Part shown: one piece after another, positions 25,100-49,441 of the stretch | Numbering within the stretch: the first letter of the stretch is position 1 | Layout: every line of letters starts with the position of its first letter | Virus record (IMG/VR): IMGVR_UViG_3300027985_001099 | Location: 1 to 57,897 of that record | Reading direction: 5' to 3' (one strand) | DNA from: a virus | DNA: 57,897 nt | Notes under the pieces: model-generated | What the model was told of the DNA's origin: nothing | Seen by the model: the letters and a program-made list of their open reading frames with translations, nothing else | The model's database searches: none | Program-made: the position numbers and the translations under genes

Positions 25100-27151
25100 C
25101 TAGTCCTTGCGATAGCACCAACTGACGTAACCTGCAGCTTTCAACGGTAGCCCCGGCGCCCAGCTTGGTACCTGCTCCATGCACTCTATAAGCTCGTGCA
25201 GCCCTTGGTCGGGGGCGCTGCCGTCTGTGACCGATACGATCTCATCATGTACGTGCAACACAACCTCAATTCCTCGCCGGTCGGCTTGTACCAGCCCGTG
25301 GGCCAAAATATCCCGGGACACCGCCTGGTCGATATTCTCCGCCAGCTTGCCTGGGTGTGTGTTGAGCCGCACCCACTGTTTGCGCTCGTTTAGTCCCTCG
25401 TAGGTAATGCCGAGATGGTAGTCACCCCAAGGCATCCGGCACATTTCCAGAGCCGGCCTGCAGTAGTGCAGGCGGCGACCTGACGGCAGCAGGATCCGCA
25501 TAAACGGCCCATCGATATCGAATATCACCCGTCTAGCCCCCTCGCCAACTGCCTGTGGCTCGTGACTGGCAATGCAAAGTCTAGCCGCCTTGTCCAGGGC
25601 CCACCACCAATCGACGACCTTCGTATACGTGGCCCGGAAAACCTTAACCGATAGCTCCGCTTGTTCCGGTGTGAGGCGTACCCCCATATCCCAGGCGTAC
25701 CCAAGCAGCCCCGTTGCCGAGACCTCGCCAGTCTTTGGGTCCTCGATAACCTGCCCCTTGCTGAGCATGTACCCGCAGCCGAGAACCCCGGGCTTGGCCA
25801 CCGTGCGCTTAGTCTTATCCCCAGCTTTGTACTCCGCTTCGAGCACGGAATACGGCTTGTCGTAGATGTAGGTGGCAAAGTCTAGGTACGGACACCGGCC
25901 GGCTGCGAATACCTGAAGAATCTTTGGCTCGTCGGCCAGCCAGCCAAGTACCCGGTTTTCTATGGCGTTAAGGTCCGCTACCGCCAGGGCCTGCCCCTCG
26001 GGTGCCTGGATAGACCCGCGTACGCAAGATGACAACGTATCCATGACCGGTGCCGGGGATACCACCGATAATACCGCTGCAGATAGGTCCCCAACATCGC
26101 GCACTGCTTGCGAGTACTCTGGGTCCTTCTCAAGGGCTTTAACCGGTCGCGCCAGATTCTGCCCCTGTAGGATCCGGCCGGCAAACCTTCCAGTACGGAG
26201 AGCCCCTAAAAACTGAATCGTATTGCGTAGCCTACCGTCGGCGTCCACCGCCCGTTGAATGGCGTGGTATTTTTTCACGCTCGTCTTGGCAGACTGTTTA
26301 CGGAGCTCAAGTACCCTCCGCAGCTGACCGGACAAGGCCTCATCTTCGAGGGCCTTGCGGATGTGCCCCTTTTGCAAATCGTTGAATGGGTACCCGCGGG
26401 ACTGCGCCCAGGGGAGCAGCTGAGTGGCCGAATTGGAGTTAGCTAGCCTAGTTATCCGGTTTTGTTCTCCCAGCAGGTGCTGCAGCTCATCGCGGATTAC
26501 TGTGCAGGCGTTGTCGACCATGCGGAGGTTGATGGGTAGCCCGGCTTCGTTGATCCTGCGGTCAAGTCGCCACAGTTCAATCTCGCTATCCAAGGGCGGC
26601 CAGCGGCGAATGCGTCGGAATATGGCGCGCTCCGCGGCCACGTCGCGCCGGTTATAAAGCTTGAACGTCTCCCAAGCCTCCGGGTCTGTTGTCCGGTCCC
26701 GAAATCCGCCAGCAAAGGTTTTGGTTTTCGCATTGGGCGTACAAAAGCGCCGTATCAACGCCCTACCCTCCGCCATCTTCAGGTATTCTTCCGGCAATTT
26801 GATAACCTGGCCTGCCTTTTCCAGCTTGCCCGGTATCCCGAGGGACATGGCCCAGGCCATGGTGCAAAACCACTGGTGCAGGTCCATCGGGATCTGCAGG
26901 ACGTGCTCGAAAATGGTGAGCTCAAACGCCGCATTCCAAGCCTGCTTGCGTACCGATGGATCGCGAAGGAGACCTAGTAAGTCTTTGCCCAGGGTCTGTC
27001 CCTCGGCAAACACCACCTGCTCAATTGGGTCATCATTGACTGCCCACGACAGCATCAACGCCTCGGTGGAACGGTCCCGGGCATAACGGCTGACTCCGTC
27101 TTCTATGTTCCGCTTAGACCGGGTTTCGAAGTCCAAAAACAAGTAATCCAT
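25100..27151 (-). CDS. DNA polymerase, family A
   Basis: 683 aa from the ATG at 27151 (GAGGAACACC upstream). The 3'-5' exonuclease domain has DFETRS (D7, E9) and exo III in YNRRDVAAE (about 165-173). The polymerase domain has motif A VADLNAIENRVLGW, motif B (O-helix) KRTVAKPGVLGCGYMLSKGQ and motif C LHVHDEIV. It is the replicative polymerase of the lytic phase. Within the exo III region lies a 58-bp stretch that is duplicated exactly in the DUF3850 gene at 44135. A parS-like site lies just upstream of its start. Confidence 0.93.
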   Translation of the reverse strand: MDYLFLDFETRSKRNIEDGVSRYARDRSTEALMLSWAVNDDPIEQVVFAEGQTLGKDLLGLLRDPSVRKQAWNAAFELTIFEHVLQIPMDLHQWFCTMAWAMSLGIPGKLEKAGQVIKLPEEYLKMAEGRALIRRFCTPNAKTKTFAGGFRDRTTDPEAWETFKLYNRRDVAAERAIFRRIRRWPPLDSEIELWRLDRRINEAGLPINLRMVDNACTVIRDELQHLLGEQNRITRLANSNSATQLLPWAQSRGYPFNDLQKGHIRKALEDEALSGQLRRVLELRKQSAKTSVKKYHAIQRAVDADGRLRNTIQFLGALRTGRFAGRILQGQNLARPVKALEKDPEYSQAVRDVGDLSAAVLSVVSPAPVMDTLSSCVRGSIQAPEGQALAVADLNAIENRVLGWLADEPKILQVFAAGRCPYLDFATYIYDKPYSVLEAEYKAGDKTKRTVAKPGVLGCGYMLSKGQVIEDPKTGEVSATGLLGYAWDMGVRLTPEQAELSVKVFRATYTKVVDWWWALDKAARLCIASHEPQAVGEGARRVIFDIDGPFMRILLPSGRRLHYCRPALEMCRMPWGDYHLGITYEGLNERKQWVRLNTHPGKLAENIDQAVSRDILAHGLVQADRRGIEVVLHVHDEIVSVTDGSAPDQGLHELIECMEQVPSWAPGLPLKAAGYVSWCYRKD
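26629..26686 (-). repeat. 58-bp exact duplication, copy in DNA polymerase
   Basis: Identical base for base to 44135-44192 on the plus strand. Both copies are read in the same frame and code DPEAWETFKLYNRRDVAAE. Here it is the exo III motif region of the polymerase, so this is the parent copy. Confidence 0.9.
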
Positions 27152-27165
27152 GGTGTTCCTCACGA

Positions 27166-27181
27166 CGTTTCACGTGGAACA
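27166..27181. promoter_or_regulatory. parS-like site 4
   Basis: CGTTTCACGTGGAACA, identical to the site at 18621 and 14 of 16 positions of the parS consensus. It lies between the DUF2815 gene terminator hairpin and the polymerase start. Confidence 0.65.
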
Positions 27182-27183
27182 AA

Positions 27184-27201
27184 GCCCCGCCTAGGCGGGG
27201 C
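27184..27201 (-). terminator. Hairpin after the DUF2815 gene
   Basis: GCCCCGCCTAGGCGGGGC, an 18-bp palindrome followed on the minus strand by TTTGTT. It lies just past the stop of the ssDNA-binding-type gene and probably reduces transcription into the polymerase gene. Confidence 0.6.
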
Positions 27202-27208
27202 CTGCGAG

Positions 27209-27802
27209 TCACTCCCACTGGTCGGGTGCGCCCTCGCCATCGTCCTCGTCCTCGTCGAAATCCTCGAAGTCCTTGGCGGTGGCCGAAGCGGCGCCGATCT
27301 TCTCCCCATGAGCGGCAAACTTGATGCCTTCCAGGGAACAGTTCACCTGCCGGCCTGCGGCGGCTTCCATGGCGTAGAATCGGATCATGGCGTGAACGTA
27401 ACACCCGCCATAAATTGTGCCGTCGTCCGTCAGCAATTGCTGCTGGCCGCGGAATACCGGAACCGGGCCCTGGGATTCGGCGCGGTTGGCCGACAGGTAA
27501 AAATGCCCTTTATACAGGTCCCCGGTGCGCCCGCAATTGTCTGAGTCACCGTCCCGAAGGGCGCAGTTGTCAAACTTGAGCTTGACCGCTTCCCCAGGCC
27601 ATTTTGCCTCGAATGCCGCCTTAATCGCCTTTTTGATCTGGGCTATGGCCTCTTTGTCGGCTTCTTTGTCAAAGTAGAACTCCGCGCCATAGCGGGGCTT
27701 GCCGTCACCACCGTCATTTTTCACGGTTTCGGCTTTGTAGCATTTCGGATACAGCATCCGCACCCGGCGCAGTTTCACCTCGGTATTCGGTTTCTCAGCC
27801 AT
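27209..27802 (-). CDS. DUF2815 family ssDNA-binding-type protein
   Basis: 197 aa, ATG at 27802 with AAAGGGAAA upstream. Family segments: LYPKCYKAETVKNDGGDGKP, GAEFYFDKEADKEAIAQIKK, LRDGDSDN, GHFYLSANR and a strongly acidic C-terminus (DFEDFDEDEDDGEGAPDQWE). An OB-like core with an acidic tail is typical of single-strand binding proteins. It is paired with DUF2800 and polymerase A in many phages and would coat ssDNA during replication. Confidence 0.85.
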   Translation of the reverse strand: MAEKPNTEVKLRRVRMLYPKCYKAETVKNDGGDGKPRYGAEFYFDKEADKEAIAQIKKAIKAAFEAKWPGEAVKLKFDNCALRDGDSDNCGRTGDLYKGHFYLSANRAESQGPVPVFRGQQQLLTDDGTIYGGCYVHAMIRFYAMEAAAGRQVNCSLEGIKFAAHGEKIGAASATAKDFEDFDEDEDDGEGAPDQWE

Positions 27803-29864: not shown

Positions 29865-30113
29865 ATGGCCAGAGGTAGAACCATAAAAACAAAGGAGCTG
29901 GGAGATCTGCAGGATCTTTTTCTGAAGCACTGCCCGCCCAACGAATATGGCGAGCGGTCAATCCCGCTTTTCGCCGCGTTCATCGGCGCGTCCGTTAGCG
30001 TGGTGTACAAGTGGATAGCGAAAAAGTCGGTTAGCCCGGCGTGGGCTAAAACCATCGAGAAAAAAACCAACGGTAAAATCAAGCGATCCCAGCTGAATGA
30101 CCTGTTTAAGTAG
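29865..30113 (+). CDS. Small helix-turn-helix protein (Cro-type candidate)
   Basis: 82 aa from the ATG at 29865 (an in-frame TTG at 29850 is possible). The segment PLFAAFIGASVSVVYKWIAK reads like the two helices of an HTH of the YdaS/Cro kind, followed by SPAWAKTIEKKTNGKIKRSQ, and the protein is basic. It is the first gene right of the divergent promoters. It probably represses one or both promoters, which is inference. Confidence 0.7.
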   Translation: MARGRTIKTKELGDLQDLFLKHCPPNEYGERSIPLFAAFIGASVSVVYKWIAKKSVSPAWAKTIEKKTNGKIKRSQLNDLFK

Positions 30114-30192: not shown

Positions 30193-30510
30193 ATGACTAT
30201 CGAACGCGACACTAGAACCACAACTTTGGAAGTGCGAACGTTCCTGAAATCGTTCGCCAAAGGGCGTGCCTTACTGGATGAAGAAGGCTCGCTAGACCCG
30301 GTAACCCGGCGGGAAAATTTCATCGCCCTATGTACTCGTTGGGGTCTGAATGGCAGCTTCCTGGCGTGCGCGCTGAACCGTAACCTATCCACGATCCGGG
30401 ACTATCGGAGCGGGTGGAAAGAGATCCCGCCGGAGATTTCCGCCGTGTTGAGGTATAAAATGGATGCCCTCACCGAAGATGGCTTGTCACGGCCGAATCG
30501 GCACAAATGA
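30193..30510 (+). CDS. Putative DNA-binding regulator
   Basis: 105 aa, with no strong ribosome-binding site. LCTRWGLNGSFLACALNRNLSTIRDYRSGW (about residues 53-82) fits an HTH: a helix, a turn at RWGLN and a recognition helix around STIRDYRSG. The gene lies between the Cro-type gene and the primase-helicase. The upstream 30154-30167 has TAGTA / TACTA as an inverted repeat, a candidate operator. Confidence 0.6.
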   Translation: MTIERDTRTTTLEVRTFLKSFAKGRALLDEEGSLDPVTRRENFIALCTRWGLNGSFLACALNRNLSTIRDYRSGWKEIPPEISAVLRYKMDALTEDGLSRPNRHK

Positions 30511-30525
30511 GCTTGGGGGGTACAC

Positions 30526-33099
30526 ATGGATGTGTTACGCGCCGCACTGGAGTACGCGGGGGCTGGGATCGCGGCCCATTGGCTTCAGCCGAAATCAAAA
30601 CTACCTATCGGACAGGGCTGGTCCACGCGACCAACCGCCAGCCTTCAGGAACTGCAAGACACATACCGAAAGGGTAATAACCTGGGGGTCCGCCCCGGCA
30701 AGTTCAGCAAGGTCGGTGACCGATATCTAGTGGTAATCGACCTTGATATTCGTATCGATAGCCACCGGGATATTGCCCTGGCCAAGCTTTCCGAGCTGTT
30801 CCCGTTTCACTCCGACTTACCGACTATTCAATCCGGTTCAGGAGGCCACAGCCGACACTTCTGGATCCTGCTTCCGGTACCGGTTAACTCGCAGATGCTG
30901 GCCCACTCTGACGTCGAGTACACCGGGGACGACGGGCACGTTCACTTTGCCTGGGAGATAGAGGCCTACGGGACAGGTAAGCAAACTGCGGTACCCCCGT
31001 CCATCCACCCCGCGTCCGGAAAAGAGTACATCTGGCTGGCAAACCGGCCCGAGTTTGACTTGGGGATCTGGCCTGAGGCCTGTCTAGTTGACACGCTGCC
31101 CTGTCTTGCCGTTGACGGCTGGGACGACATGTTCGAAGACTCTGGCAACGACTTCGACTTTGTCTATCACTTGAAGCAGCCGTTACCGATCAGCGACGAA
31201 CAAGTCGCCCAGTGCCTTGACACATACCGGGCGGATGGTCTGCACTACAACGACTGGCTTCGGGTCGGCCAGGCTTTGCACCATCAGTACCGCGGAGACG
31301 ACACCGGATTTCAGCTCTGGCTGAACTGGTCCGAACAGTCATCAAAACACGACGACTCACAAATGGCTTACCGCTGGGACAGTTTCGGGCGGTACCAAGG
31401 CGGCCACGGCCCCGTGACCATGTACTCGATCCTGAAGCTGGCCGGCATGGACCCAAAGGCCATACAACGGATCGAGTTGCTGCACAGGTTCATGGTCAAG
31501 ATAAATGAAGTCTCTGATATGGGCGCTATGACCTCACTCCAAGGCGAAATCAGCAAGATACCATTTACCGAGCTCAACGAGGGGGAGCGATCCATTTTGG
31601 CTGGCGTGATGCGTACTCAGATGGCCGCGGTGTTGGGAAAGGGCGTCCAACCCCCAACCCGGGCCGAGATTAAAAAGCAGATCATGCCGACTAAAGCCGG
31701 CCTGGCCGACCAGGCGGCCGACATGGAGGTCCCCGGCTGGATGAAACCTTGGGTCTACGTGACCGCCGATGAGGTATTCTTCCATCGGGGCACCGGTGAA
31801 CGGATCAGCGAACGGGCGTTTAACGCCCTGTACGACGCCGAAGCCGGAAAGTTATTTTCCTACAATGACACCGGCCTCCTGACTGCGGTACACGCCGCAG
31901 AAGCCGCGCTAAACATATTCCAGATCAAAAAGCCGTATCAGACCATGTACTGGCCGGGGCGGAAATCCGTGTTTACCGACGACGGCAAGCTCTACGCAAA
32001 CAGTTACCGCGACACCGGCCCCAAGGCGGACCAGGACACCGGCAGCCGGCGCGGTGTTGAGCTAATGATGATCCACCTGCGAAACCTGTTCCCGAGCCAG
32101 AAGCACCGGGAGCTGGTGCTCGATTTCCTGGCGCACATCGTACAGCACCCCGGAAAGAAACTGCTTTACGCGATACTCATTAAGGGCGTCCAGGGGGACG
32201 GAAAAACCTGGATGCTGGAAATGCTTCAGTCCGTGCTCGGCCGGACGAACACCACTTTGATAAAAAGCGCCCATCTCCGCAAGGAGTTCAACGGCTACTG
32301 CGAGCATTCGATCCTGTGCGGGATCGAGGAAATAAAACAACACAACGCAGATGCCCTGGATGTCCTAAACAACATGAAGGACATGATCACAAACCGGACA
32401 CTACCGGTAGAGCGTAAAGGCGTCGACATCAGCAAGATCAGAAATTTCGCGAACTTCTTCCTGACCACGAATTACTCCGACGCCCTGCCCATAACTAATG
32501 ACGATAACCGATACGCAGTACTGTTCACCCGGTTCGCCACGTCGGATGATGTCGACGACTGGGCCTCCGACTGGGCTAAGAGCTCCGGGTACGAATTCTT
32601 TCCGGCGCTATATGACGAGGTTCAGAGTAACCCCTATCAGTTCCGAGAGTTCTTCGAACAGTACAAATTCAGTGACCAGTACGCCCCGAATCGTCGGGCG
32701 CCACATACCGGGTTCGCTCGGATCATGGAGGTGGCCTCGCGCTCCGAGGCCGAGATGTTGTTGCTGGATATCGTCGATAAAGGCCAAAACCCGGCGCTAT
32801 CGCGAAAGTGTTTTGACTGGGGTAGGTTCAAAACCAAGCTTGACGCCCTAGACCCGGAAAACCGTATCCACGGGCGCTCAGTGTCAACCCTAATGGGTAA
32901 GCTCGGATTCTTCGTTGCGGACCCTGACCGGGTTTGCCACAACGGCGGCAAGTACCGGATATGGACATCTGACCGGTCGTTATTCGATGACCAAATGGCG
33001 CTAACTGCCGCGGGCCTGCAGACAATCAAAACCCTGCTAAGCCAGCAGGAGGCCCAGGATCGCGGCGGGTTTGAGGATAACGTTGAGTCCCTGAGATAG
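30526..33099 (+). CDS. Primase-polymerase / SF3-type helicase
   Basis: 857 aa, ATG with GGGGGG upstream. Residues 1-200 are a Prim-Pol (AEP) domain with VVIDLDIRID (metal-binding Asp pair) and SGSGGHSRHFW. Residues of about 225-300 form a PriCT-type segment (LHYNDWLRVGQALHHQYRG). Residues of about 520-720 are a helicase with Walker A GVQGDGKT (near 554), Walker B-like SILCGIEEI and a sensor FFLTTNYSDALP. The combination primes and unwinds DNA for the phage polymerase. It ends in front of a strong terminator and a non-coding region with iterons. Confidence 0.9.
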   Translation: MDVLRAALEYAGAGIAAHWLQPKSKLPIGQGWSTRPTASLQELQDTYRKGNNLGVRPGKFSKVGDRYLVVIDLDIRIDSHRDIALAKLSELFPFHSDLPTIQSGSGGHSRHFWILLPVPVNSQMLAHSDVEYTGDDGHVHFAWEIEAYGTGKQTAVPPSIHPASGKEYIWLANRPEFDLGIWPEACLVDTLPCLAVDGWDDMFEDSGNDFDFVYHLKQPLPISDEQVAQCLDTYRADGLHYNDWLRVGQALHHQYRGDDTGFQLWLNWSEQSSKHDDSQMAYRWDSFGRYQGGHGPVTMYSILKLAGMDPKAIQRIELLHRFMVKINEVSDMGAMTSLQGEISKIPFTELNEGERSILAGVMRTQMAAVLGKGVQPPTRAEIKKQIMPTKAGLADQAADMEVPGWMKPWVYVTADEVFFHRGTGERISERAFNALYDAEAGKLFSYNDTGLLTAVHAAEAALNIFQIKKPYQTMYWPGRKSVFTDDGKLYANSYRDTGPKADQDTGSRRGVELMMIHLRNLFPSQKHRELVLDFLAHIVQHPGKKLLYAILIKGVQGDGKTWMLEMLQSVLGRTNTTLIKSAHLRKEFNGYCEHSILCGIEEIKQHNADALDVLNNMKDMITNRTLPVERKGVDISKIRNFANFFLTTNYSDALPITNDDNRYAVLFTRFATSDDVDDWASDWAKSSGYEFFPALYDEVQSNPYQFREFFEQYKFSDQYAPNRRAPHTGFARIMEVASRSEAEMLLLDIVDKGQNPALSRKCFDWGRFKTKLDALDPENRIHGRSVSTLMGKLGFFVADPDRVCHNGGKYRIWTSDRSLFDDQMALTAAGLQTIKTLLSQQEAQDRGGFEDNVESLR

Positions 33100-33127: not shown

Positions 33128-33148
33128 AGGGGCCTCGGGCCCCTTTTT
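33128..33148 (+). terminator. Rho-independent terminator of the primase-helicase operon
   Basis: AGGGGCC / GGCCCCT, a 7-bp perfect stem with a TCG loop, followed by TTTT. It lies 29 bp after the stop codon. Confidence 0.85.
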
Positions 33149-33212
33149 GCTGCCCAGTTGAAATTTCACAGCGTGACGAATGTCACACCCGAAATTTCCG
33201 GATGTGGGGCCT

Positions 33213-33309
33213 AAAAATTCTGAAATTTCCGGGCAGTATGTTTTAGGGGTTTTCAAAATTTCAGAATTTTTGCGAAAAATCCGCCAGGCGGGCCAAAAAT
33301 TCTGAAATC
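33213..33309. repeat. Inverted repeats AAAAATTCTGAAATTT
   Basis: 33213-33228 and 33256-33271 form a perfect 16-bp inverted repeat with a 27-bp spacer. A third, direct copy (15 bp, last base different) lies at 33295-33309. The segment is A/T-rich and sits next to the iterons. Related AATTTCAGAATT units return at 35341-35380. Confidence 0.85.
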
Positions 33310-33351
33310 TCTTTACCGGGGGCGTAAACGTCGATTTTTGGGGGCTTGGCT

Positions 33352-33703
33352 CGCCTAGTTTACACCAGACGCCTAGTTTACACGCCTAGTTTAAAACAAA
33401 GTGGCCGTGCGTAACCCGATGTATCCAATACGCTTTTACCAACGCGCCTACTTTAGCCTAGTTTATCCAAGTCGCTACAGGAAAGGGTGAAAAAAAACCA
33501 CACCCTGGTGATGATCGGGCTCACGTGAATTCATCACGCGTATAGGTAGGAACCCAGATAAAGTGGGAAGTAGGCGTGTTTTGCGGATAACGCGTGGGAA
33601 ATCAGGACGTTACGCACGCCTAGTTTATGAATAACTAGGCGCGCATAAGTGGGCGTGTCGGAATAGACTAGACAACTCAACGACTTGCGTCGCGCCTAGT
33701 TTA
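33352..33703. repeat. Iteron array CGCCTAGTTTA (candidate replication origin)
   Basis: Eight copies of an 11-bp unit lie in a region with no gene: CGCCTAGTTTA at 33352, 33370, 33383, 33617 and 33693; variants at 33445 (CGCCTACTTTA) and 33455 (AGCCTAGTTTA); and an inverted variant at 33631-33641. The first three form a cluster with near-regular spacing. The region between the terminator at 33148 and the spanin stop at 33707 holds no open frame I can support. Directly repeated initiator sites next to A/T-rich repeats, beside the primase-helicase, are the layout of an origin. DnaA-box-like TTATCC also occurs at 33463. Confidence 0.75.
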
Positions 33704-35001: not shown

Positions 35002-35151
35002 ATGGCGCACGCACACACCGCATATCTTGATCTAAATCAAGATTTAGAGGTTGTGCATGTAAATTTCAGAATGTTTGCCTCACCGCGGCTCTGCGCCCCC
35101 GCGGGTGGCCCGACCAGCTGGAAGGACCCGTGCTACGGGCGTGCTACATAG
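35002..35151 (+). CDS. Very small hypothetical protein
   Basis: 49 aa, ATG at 35002, 6 bp after the previous stop, with AGGCGGAT upstream. It starts MAHAHTAYLDLNQDLEVVHV. Not recognised. The C-terminal part has a less protein-like composition, so it may be decayed. Confidence 0.35.
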   Translation: MAHAHTAYLDLNQDLEVVHVNFRMFASPRLCAPAGGPTSWKDPCYGRAT

Positions 35152-35338
35152 CCAAAATTTTGGCGTGAACCCGGCGCCCCCGCTGCAGCCAGCCAGCGAC
35201 ACCACAAAGCACAGCACAAGCGCATGGCATGGCAACCCATGGCCTAGCAGTGCAGAGCTCAGGCGGCCAGTATACGGGCCCAGGCACTGGCCAGAATATC
35301 GCCCGCAATAACACGGCCGCCAGGCATAGCACGCCCCC

Positions 35339-35450
35339 AGAATTTCAGAATTCCGGCCCCCAGAATTTCAGAATTCCGGCCCCCAGAATTCCGGCCCCCG
35401 GCCCCCGGGCGCAACACGCCCCCCAGAATTCCGGCCCCAGAATTCCAGGC
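35339..35450. repeat. CCCAGAATTTCAGAATTCCGG repeat cluster
   Basis: Two consecutive 21-bp direct repeats beginning at about 35339 and 35360 (core CAGAATTTCAGAATTCCGG) are followed by three shorter copies of CAGAATTCC. The half-sites resemble the AAATTTCAGAATTTTT repeats at 33.2 kb. The surrounding 35152-35449 has no supported gene. Confidence 0.8.
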
Positions 35451-48457: not shown

Positions 48458-49441
48458 ATGGAATGCCGCTGTGCGCCGCATGGGCGCGATCAATTTATTG
48501 ACCGGTTACCCCGCCGGCCGTACTGCACCGATGACCCCGCTAGCGGGTTGGACATTCGGCCAAAACACACGGCGCTACGGTACCGGCACATCCAGCCAAA
48601 CCCACCCGCCCATGTGTCCTGCCTGGTTTTCGATATCGATCGGGATAACGGGTATTACGCCTGGAAAGATACCGGGCTACCCGAGCCGCATTGGGCGTCT
48701 GTCAATCGCAAAAATGGCCATGCGCACATCGGGTACCTGCTCGCCACGCCGGTTGTCCGCACCAATGCCGCCCGGCTGGCGCCGCTACGGTACCTAGCGG
48801 CCATTGAGTGGGTCTTGAAGCGTAGGCTTGGCGCAGACATGGGGTACGTTGGCCTCATATCAAAGAATCCCGTCCACGACGATTGGCTAACCGTATGGGC
48901 CCCCCTAGACCCGTACACTCTGGATTACCTGGCCGAGTTCTGTCCGGACTGCGAGCTGGCCGAATATGCGCAAAGGCCGAAACGCGAACACGCCGGGCTC
49001 GGGCGAAACGTTGAGCTGTTCGACAGCGTCCGGGGATGGGCATATACCGCCGTCAGAGCGTACTGGAGACCAGACGGGTATGGAGCTTGGGCAGACGCTG
49101 TGCTTGATGCCTGCCGACAGGCTAACGCCTATGGCGCCGACGTAGGGGGGCCGTTACCCGTTAACGAGGTGCGGGCCACGGCCAAGAGCATTGCGAAATG
49201 GGTCTGGCACAGGTTCACGCCGGCCGGGTTTAGCGAGGTACAAGCTAAGCGGGGGGCTAAGGGCGGTAGGGTGTCGAAACGGCCAACCCGCAGCGGAAAG
49301 ACTATGGGCGAGCTGCTGCCTGAGGTCCACCGGCTCAAGGCTTCCGGCAGCAGCACCCAGGACATAGCCGATCAGCTCAACATCAGCACCGGATCCGTCA
49401 AGCGGTACCTGCGGCAGCCTAGCGATCAAGTGGATCAATAA
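48458..49441 (+). CDS. rep: ColE2-type plasmid replication initiator Rep
   Basis: 327 aa, ATG at 48458. The N-terminal catalytic domain has QFIDRLPRRPYCTDDPASGL, LRYRHIQPNPPAHVSCLVFD-type segments with FDIDRD, NRKNGHAHIGYLLATPV and a PriCT-like part (GRNVELFDSVRGWAYTAVRA). These are the marks of the Replicase / ColE2 Rep family (about 300 aa), which makes a short RNA primer at its origin for host DNA polymerase I. A C-terminal HTH (STQDIADQLNISTGSVKRYL) would bind the origin. The origin motif follows the stop codon immediately. This gene is out of place in a lambda-like phage and makes it a candidate phage-plasmid. Confidence 0.9.
   Translation: MECRCAPHGRDQFIDRLPRRPYCTDDPASGLDIRPKHTALRYRHIQPNPPAHVSCLVFDIDRDNGYYAWKDTGLPEPHWASVNRKNGHAHIGYLLATPVVRTNAARLAPLRYLAAIEWVLKRRLGADMGYVGLISKNPVHDDWLTVWAPLDPYTLDYLAEFCPDCELAEYAQRPKREHAGLGRNVELFDSVRGWAYTAVRAYWRPDGYGAWADAVLDACRQANAYGADVGGPLPVNEVRATAKSIAKWVWHRFTPAGFSEVQAKRGAKGGRVSKRPTRSGKTMGELLPEVHRLKASGSSTQDIADQLNISTGSVKRYLRQPSDQVDQ

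What the first reader, a model, noticed from the sequence alone, without database searches (positions are those of the whole stretch)
33352..33703. Eight-copy iteron array, likely second replication origin
Seen: CGCCTAGTTTA in five exact and three near copies, one inverted, in a 0.6-kb non-coding region between the primase-helicase terminator and the spanins. Adjacent are perfect inverted repeats of an A/T-rich 16-mer. This is an initiator-binding layout separate from the ColE2-type origin, suggesting one origin for the plasmid state and one for lytic growth. No obvious iteron-binding Rep is present, so the binder may be the primase-helicase or a small HTH protein.
Basis: partly seen in the sequence, partly recalled or inferred. 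Interest (0 to 1): 0.7.

Follow-up and report, generated by a model that had tools for sequence, protein, structure and literature searches.

The report
Phage primase-helicase replication origin repeats
A cluster of short repeats just behind a phage's primase-helicase gene is very probably the phage's main DNA replication origin; the same layout, with a different repeat 'password' in each lineage, recurs across a whole phage family and in small plasmids, so it is a known kind of origin in a place where it seems not to have been described.

Summary
CGCCTAGTTTA occurs five times exactly, twice with one mismatch and once inverted with two, all within 33352-33703. At one mismatch or fewer there is no copy elsewhere in the 57.9-kb genome (7 seen, 0.73 expected). 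The array lies between two convergent genes, 0.25 kb behind a Prim-Pol/PriCT-2/DUF5906 primase-helicase gene. The genome is a Casjensviridae-like phage.

Comparison decides the function. Behind the homologous gene, 29 of 69 non-redundant relatives carry a significant short-repeat array, against 6 of 266 control stretches. The motif differs by lineage and is nearly absent outside the array. Three small plasmids with a DUF5906 primase-helicase have a clear one; two more have weaker repeats. In one clade the motif changed in all copies together while the spacing stayed fixed. The phage's cos site is 1.4 kb away and lacks the motif.

Best reading: the primary, family-ancestral origin, bound by the C-terminal winged-helix-like domain of the primase-helicase, as in P4, SaPI and PICI replicons. 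It is not a 'second' origin: the ColE2-type Rep (48458-49441) is the exceptional part, found in 1 of 20 related records. Binding and origin activity remain inferred. A second repeat, AATTTCAGAATT, links this region to cos.

The parts
30526..33099 (+). Primase-polymerase/SF3 helicase (857 aa): Prim-Pol, PriCT-2 and DUF5906 domains, C-terminal winged-helix-like domain (about residues 741-846); proposed initiator
   Evidence: Pfam, PHROGs 'DNA primase', PDB sequence hit to NrS-1 primase, AlphaFold model, fold matches
33129..33148 (+). GC hairpin followed by TTTTT, primase terminator (GGGGCC TCG GGCCCC TTTTT)
   Evidence: read directly in the sequence; not listed by the consensus scan
33159..33311 (.). 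A/T-rich stretch with inverted and direct repeats (AAAAATTCTGAAATTT / AAATTTCAGAATTTTT, GAAATTTC); candidate unwinding element and second site family
   Evidence: (D4-D6, I2, I4), A+T up to 66% in 50-bp windows, AATTTCAGAATT copies at 33216(-), 33257(+), 33298(-)
33352..33362 (+). iteron 1, exact CGCCTAGTTTA
33370..33380 (+). iteron 2, exact
33383..33393 (+). iteron 3, exact
33445..33455 (+). iteron 4, one mismatch (CGCCTACTTTA)
33455..33465 (+). iteron 5, one mismatch (AGCCTAGTTTA)
33568..33578 (-). weak inverted copy (CACGCCTACTT), tentative
33617..33627 (+). iteron 6, exact; forms an imperfect 39-bp dyad with the next
   Evidence: (I5)
33631..33641 (-). iteron 7, inverted, two mismatches (CGCCTAGTTAT)
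33647..33657 (-). weak inverted copy (CACGCCCACTT), tentative
33693..33703 (+). iteron 8, exact; 3 bp from the o-spanin stop codon
35062..35073 (+). AATTTCAGAATG, distal copy of the second repeat, 15 bp from cos
35088..35099 (-). predicted cos overhang GGGGCGCAGAGC (one mismatch to GGTGCGCAGAGC of the Chi, Yonseivirus and AVP3 records; homologous to the annotated BcepNazgul cos overhang)
35341..35375 (+). two exact distal copies of AATTTCAGAATT (35341-35352, 35364-35375)
29865..30113 (+). small Cro/YdaS-like HTH protein, first gene of the replication operon
   Evidence: Pfam YdaS_toxin 2.4e-7
30193..30510 (+). second small protein (105 aa) directly upstream of the primase gene, in the position of the small annotated repressors of relatives
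   Evidence: no Pfam or PHROG hit; position as in AH2, Phobos, N133

Best explanation
The array is the initiator-binding part of the phage's primary replication origin. The primase-polymerase/SF3-helicase encoded immediately upstream binds the repeats as double-stranded DNA through its C-terminal winged-helix-like domain, assembles as hexamers, melts the neighbouring A/T-rich stretch (33159-33311), primes with its Prim-Pol/PriCT-2 domains, and hands the forks to the phage's own family-A polymerase and SSB (25100-27802). Shown here: the array, its confinement to this site, its recurrence behind the homologous gene across the family and in plasmids, the concerted motif change at fixed spacing, and the fold relationship of the protein to NrS-1, SaPI5 and D5-type helicases. 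Inferred: binding, the domain that binds, melting, priming and origin activity.
For: (1) Position: 29 of 69 non-redundant homologous loci have an over-represented 8-mer array (p<=0.01) in the 600 bp 3' of the gene, against 6 of 266 control stretches (Fisher p=3e-17). (2) Motif is clade-specific and local: in 20 of 20 loci examined no copy lies in the 700 bp 5' of the gene, and 15 of 20 have none elsewhere in the locus; in the AH2 record all 9 exact copies lie at this site or just across the genome end. (3) Plasmids with a DUF5906 primase-helicase have 3' arrays: pW47-1 GGTTACAACG about x9-10, K. pneumoniae 6.5 kb plasmid TAATCCCA x5, C. freundii plasmid ACCAAGTAC x8-9. (4) Concerted evolution: AH2/L031/L032 AGGTCCGAAT, L033 CATACCGAAT, L066 CATGCCGAAT, with four inverted copies kept at spacings 17, 12, 11-12, as expected of sites tracking one co-evolving protein. 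(5) L066 has a helicase core 94-96% identical to AH2/L032 but an L033-like motif; the C-terminal residues 761-826 give informative sites 5:1:0 for the motif grouping and carry one of only four strictly separating columns (R791F). (6) Protein: Pfam/PDB/fold matches; NrS-1 CTR Z 25.9, SaPI5 primase-helicase Z 18.9 over model 401-857, PriRep1 with dsDNA Z 13.6; isolated C-terminal domain pLDDT 85 with weak but mostly winged-helix matches. (7) Precedent: SaPI origins are iterons directly downstream of rep, recognised by the C-terminal domain; SCCmec Cch2 binds direct repeats downstream of its operon (PMC7581432); GN-PICI ori lies downstream of pri, with DUF5906 genes at mapped origins (PMC10111431); pRN1 needs the stretch 3' of its prim-pol-helicase gene, which follows a repressor gene (PMC4234260).
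Against: No direct binding or replication data. About 40 of 69 loci show no significant array in the first 600 bp by this exact-8-mer test (some have it further downstream or in a degenerate form; Chi is weak). The winged-helix assignment of the isolated domain is weak by Foldseek (best E 0.027). No close relative of this phage was found, so the motif change could not be followed in its own lineage. The window has a second, equally local repeat family (AATTTCAGAATT), so which of the two the primase binds is not settled. In AH2 the array also straddles the genome end, leaving a packaging role conceivable there.
Confidence: 0.74

Rival explanations
1. The repeats are terminase-binding sites (cosB-type) of the packaging site.
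For: In BcepNazgul the physical cos end lies 0.6 kb behind the primase in the same gap; in AH2-like phages the repeats lie on both sides of the genome end; several linear contigs end exactly at the cos overhang just behind the array.
Against: In the window the cos-like sequence is at 35088-35099, 1.4 kb away across the spanin genes, and has no CGCCTAGTTTA copy within two mismatches. Arrays recur behind DUF5906 genes of small plasmids; no terminase is named in their gene tables and none was hit among the ten of their proteins tested.
Confidence: 0.08
2. The repeats are operators of the small HTH proteins (29865-30113, 30193-30510) or of another regulator.
For: Cro/YdaS-like genes precede the primase and are conserved in position.
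Against: The array lies between two convergent 3' ends; no sigma-70-like promoter there; 0 copies in the upstream promoter region in 20 of 20 loci. L032's HTH is 68-76% identical to those of L033/L066 and 53% to AH2's, yet its motif is AH2's.
Confidence: 0.07
3. The repeats are single-stranded template sites at which the Prim-Pol/PriCT-2 part starts primers (NrS-1 manner), not duplex iterons for the C-terminal domain.
For: NrS-1 polymerase starts de novo at an 8-nt template sequence TTTGGTTA, two copies in mid-genome (PMC7102993, PMC8718748); closest solved relative of the helicase part is NrS-1.
Against: Arrays of 5-16 copies in both orientations are more than start sites need; in the AH2 clade the N-terminal half of L032 is closer to L033 than to AH2 (73 versus 62-69% in residues 1-150) although it has AH2's motif. 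Not exclusive with the best explanation.
Confidence: 0.12
4. Site for the ColE2-type Rep (48458-49441) or part of a plasmid replicon.
For: A PF03090 Replicase protein is present (E 1.5e-35).
Against: Arrays are family-wide but the Rep is in 1 of 20 related records and has no phage hit; ColE2-type Rep uses a short specific origin rather than a long iteron array (own knowledge).
Confidence: 0.03

Closest known systems
SaPI Rep/ori and Gram-negative PICI pri/ori
   Same: Origin of short repeats directly downstream of an SF3 primase-helicase gene; structural match to SaPI5 primase-helicase (Z 18.9); DUF5906 proteins are found at mapped PICI origins (PMC10111431).
   Different: Here in the genome of a full-size phage with its own polymerase, and fused to a Prim-Pol/PriCT-2 priming half; motif differs.
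Phage P4 alpha protein and ori/crr
   Same: Multi-domain primase-helicase whose C-terminal winged helix binds short repeats at the origin (described in PMC4234260); two separated repeat regions here and in PspYZU01 recall ori plus crr (own knowledge).
   Different: P4 primase is of the Toprim type; here archaeo-eukaryotic type.
Plasmid pRN1 orf56/orf904 replicon
   Same: Small repressor gene, then prim-pol-helicase gene, then an essential non-coding element 3' of it (PMC4234260).
   Different: pRN1 element is a 100-nt stem-loop, not an iteron array.
NrS-1 phage primase-polymerase
   Same: Closest solved structure (CTR, Z 25.9); sequence-specific start at an 8-nt motif (PMC7102993, PMC8718748).
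   Different: Two single copies in that genome instead of an array; the function shown is template recognition for priming.

Membership tests
SaPI/PICI/P4-type origin (iterons beside an SF3 primase-helicase initiator) | Array of short repeats in non-coding DNA directly 3' of the initiator gene | tested here: met
   family-wide
SaPI/PICI/P4-type origin (iterons beside an SF3 primase-helicase initiator) | Initiator has SF3/D5-type helicase core | tested here: met
   DUF5906; fold matches to NrS-1 CTR, SaPI5 primase-helicase, D5/E5
SaPI/PICI/P4-type origin (iterons beside an SF3 primase-helicase initiator) | C-terminal winged-helix origin-binding domain | tested here: inconclusive
   three helices plus beta-hairpin, pLDDT 85; mostly winged-helix hits but best E 0.027
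SaPI/PICI/P4-type origin (iterons beside an SF3 primase-helicase initiator) | Initiator binds the repeats; the array supports replication | not testable with these tools
   needs binding and replication assays
NrS-1-type prim-pol start site | Homologous prim-pol-helicase | tested here: met
NrS-1-type prim-pol start site | Specific single-strand template motif at which priming starts | not testable with these tools
   biochemical property
pRN1-type origin (large stem-loop) | About 100-nt stem-loop 3' of the gene | tested here: inconclusive
   a 16-bp perfect inverted repeat with a 27-nt loop exists (33213-33271); no structure test was run
cosB-type packaging sites | Repeats adjoin the cos nick site | tested here: not met
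   cos-like site at 35088-35099 with no CGCCTAGTTTA near it
Classical iteron plasmid (RepA/TrfA type) | Dedicated Rep of the iteron-binding Rep families | tested here: not met
   none among the window proteins scanned against Pfam; the only Rep hit is the Replicase PF03090; not every small ORF was scanned

The most novel reading that the evidence does not exclude
The origin is bipartite and reaches to the packaging site: a proximal array behind the primase (33.2-33.7 kb) and a second set of sites around cos (35.06-35.38 kb) are bound by the same initiator, coupling replication start or fork loading to the genome ends; across the family the site sequence is rewritten in concert with the initiator's C-terminal domain, giving mutually incompatible origins.
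Probability: 0.2. Interest if true: 0.65.

Novelty: new member of a known kind. Interest (0 to 1): 0.45.

Why it matters
It gives a concrete, testable origin for a large family of lytic phages (the Chi/Nazgul/Phobos-like Casjensviridae) for which the searches made here found no described origin, and a simple rule for finding it: look behind the prim-pol-helicase gene. The lineage-specific motifs, changed in all copies at fixed spacing, are a natural series for studying how an initiator and its origin co-evolve. The same layout in small plasmids suggests one origin module shared by phages, satellites and plasmids.

Tried and rejected
cosB reading: attractive after seeing the BcepNazgul cos in the same gap, rejected for this phage because its cos lies 1.4 kb away without the motif. 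Operator reading: rejected on convergent context and absence upstream. GC skew: cumulative skew shows no usable turn at the site and follows gene strand. Search for close relatives by primase, exonuclease or paired repeats in viral contigs and by profile in genome contigs: none. blastn of the region in phage records: no match. Profile scan with all 15 primases failed for lack of conserved stretches. The quartet test of which domain carries specificity is only suggestive: few informative sites, and the linker also favours the motif grouping (5:1:2). No classical iteron Rep seen among the proteins scanned.

Full report
What is there. The eight-copy array is real and local: five exact CGCCTAGTTTA, two with one mismatch and one inverted with two mismatches, between 33352 and 33703. 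No other place in the genome has a copy with one mismatch or fewer, against 0.73 expected over the whole window. It sits in 607 non-coding bases between the stop of an 857-aa primase-helicase (30526-33099, +) and the stop of weakly recognised spanin genes on the other strand (33707 onward). Both neighbours end here, so no promoter or operator is expected. An A/T-rich stretch with inverted repeats lies on its primase side.

What genome it is. Structural genes, terminase, family-A polymerase, SSB and DUF2800 exonuclease all match phage families, and the order polymerase-SSB-exonuclease / small HTH-primase is that of Casjensviridae such as AH2, BcepNazgul, Phobos and Chi. The cos overhang annotated in BcepNazgul lies 0.6 kb behind its primase; the homologous sequence of the window is at 35088-35099, beyond the spanin genes.

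The layout is family-wide. In AH2, BcepNazgul, MA12, AhaSv, Clavibacter phage 33, JS26, a Yonseivirus and the unrelated-looking Vibrio phage LP.1, the DNA 3' of the homologous gene holds a short-repeat array of another sequence. Over 69 non-redundant loci, 29 have a significant array in the first 600 bp against 6 of 266 control stretches (odds ratio 31, p=3e-17). The test is crude (exact 8-mers, fixed 600 bp): L050, L104 and Erythrobacter phage R16L have theirs 1.6-3 kb downstream, AhaSv and Clavibacter phage 33 have theirs 0.6-0.9 kb downstream and so fail it, and Chi is weak. In 20 loci followed motif by motif, no copy lies in the 700 bp 5' of the gene. In four full records nearly all exact copies of AGGTCCGAAT are at this site or just across the genome end.

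Plasmids. DUF5906 primase-helicase plasmids of 6.5-9.3 kb show arrays behind the gene: pW47-1 (GGTTACAACG), a K. pneumoniae plasmid (TAATCCCA) and a C. freundii plasmid (ACCAAGTAC); V. vulnificus pMP1 and pMNOD07 have weaker repeats there. In pMP1 the densest repeats are elsewhere (TAACTGTA). pW47-1 also carries a tape-measure gene, so some of these are phage satellites; no terminase was hit in the ten proteins tested. This separates the array from packaging.

Concerted change. AH2, L030, L031 and L032 use AGGTCCGAAT, L033 CATACCGAAT and L066 CATGCCGAAT, with four inverted copies kept at spacings 17, 12 and 11-12. Sites that change together while their spacing is held are what a co-evolving binding protein produces. 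L066 is mosaic: its helicase core is 94-96% identical to AH2/L032 but its motif is L033-like, so the core is not the determinant; L032's N-terminal half and its HTH protein are closer to those of L033/L066 but its motif is AH2's, which argues against both. The C-terminal residues 761-826 fit best (5:1:0), with R791F and Y796P/A in the predicted beta-hairpin. The numbers are small and this remains suggestive.

The protein. Pfam gives Prim-Pol, PriCT-2 and DUF5906. The predicted model (pLDDT 73; the first 213 residues are poorly modelled) aligns with NrS-1 CTR (Z 25.9), SaPI5 primase-helicase (Z 18.9, through the C-terminus) and PriRep1 with dsDNA (Z 13.6). The isolated C-terminal domain (pLDDT 85.5) has three helices and a hairpin; its Foldseek hits are weak but mostly winged-helix proteins.

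Mechanism. By analogy with SaPI Rep and SCCmec Cch2 (PMC7581432), P4 alpha and pRN1 (PMC4234260) and GN-PICI (PMC10111431), the primase-helicase probably binds the array, forms hexamers, melts the A/T-rich stretch and primes. Every step of this is inferred for this phage.

What stays open. The window has a second local repeat, AATTTCAGAATT, three copies beside the array and three around cos. In PspYZU01 the one motif TATGGTGCAG occurs both behind the primase (5 copies) and in the distal non-coding region near the record end (9 copies). A two-part origin reaching to cos is therefore possible, and either repeat could be the initiator's site. The ColE2-type Rep at 48458-49441 was found in 1 of 20 related records; nothing tested shows whether it works.

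Literature. The searches made found no description of the origin of Casjensviridae; the library holds only open papers, so this is not proof of novelty.

Noticed in passing
window 33216-33309 and 35062-35375: Second repeat AATTTCAGAATT: six copies (<=1 mismatch), none elsewhere, beside the array and around the cos site.
   Followed up: partly
window 35333-35448: GC-rich tandem-like repeats CCCCCAGAATTCCGGCC just beyond cos, up to six copies.
   Followed up: no
window 48458-49441 (+): ColE2-type Replicase (PF03090) in a Casjensviridae-like phage; found in 1 of 20 related records and with no hit in phage records.
   Followed up: partly
L002 6867-7191 and 9632-9941 (PspYZU01): The same motif TATGGTGCAG in two regions 2.5 kb apart, behind the primase and near the record end; recalls the ori/crr pair of P4.
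   Followed up: partly
L109, L110, L112 (plasmids): Small plasmids with a DUF5906 primase-helicase and a 3' repeat array; pW47-1 also encodes a phage tape-measure protein, suggesting a satellite.
   Followed up: partly
L111 6200-7200 (V. vulnificus pMP1): A separate dense repeat cluster TAACTGTA x9 away from the primase-helicase gene.
   Followed up: no
L114 (pTO42E, Enterobacter): A 64-kb record listed as a circular plasmid that carries a Casjensviridae-like replication module; possibly a phage or phage-plasmid.
   Followed up: no
L103 about 950-1550: A 24-copy repeat CAGGTTTGC within 600 bp in one contig.
   Followed up: no
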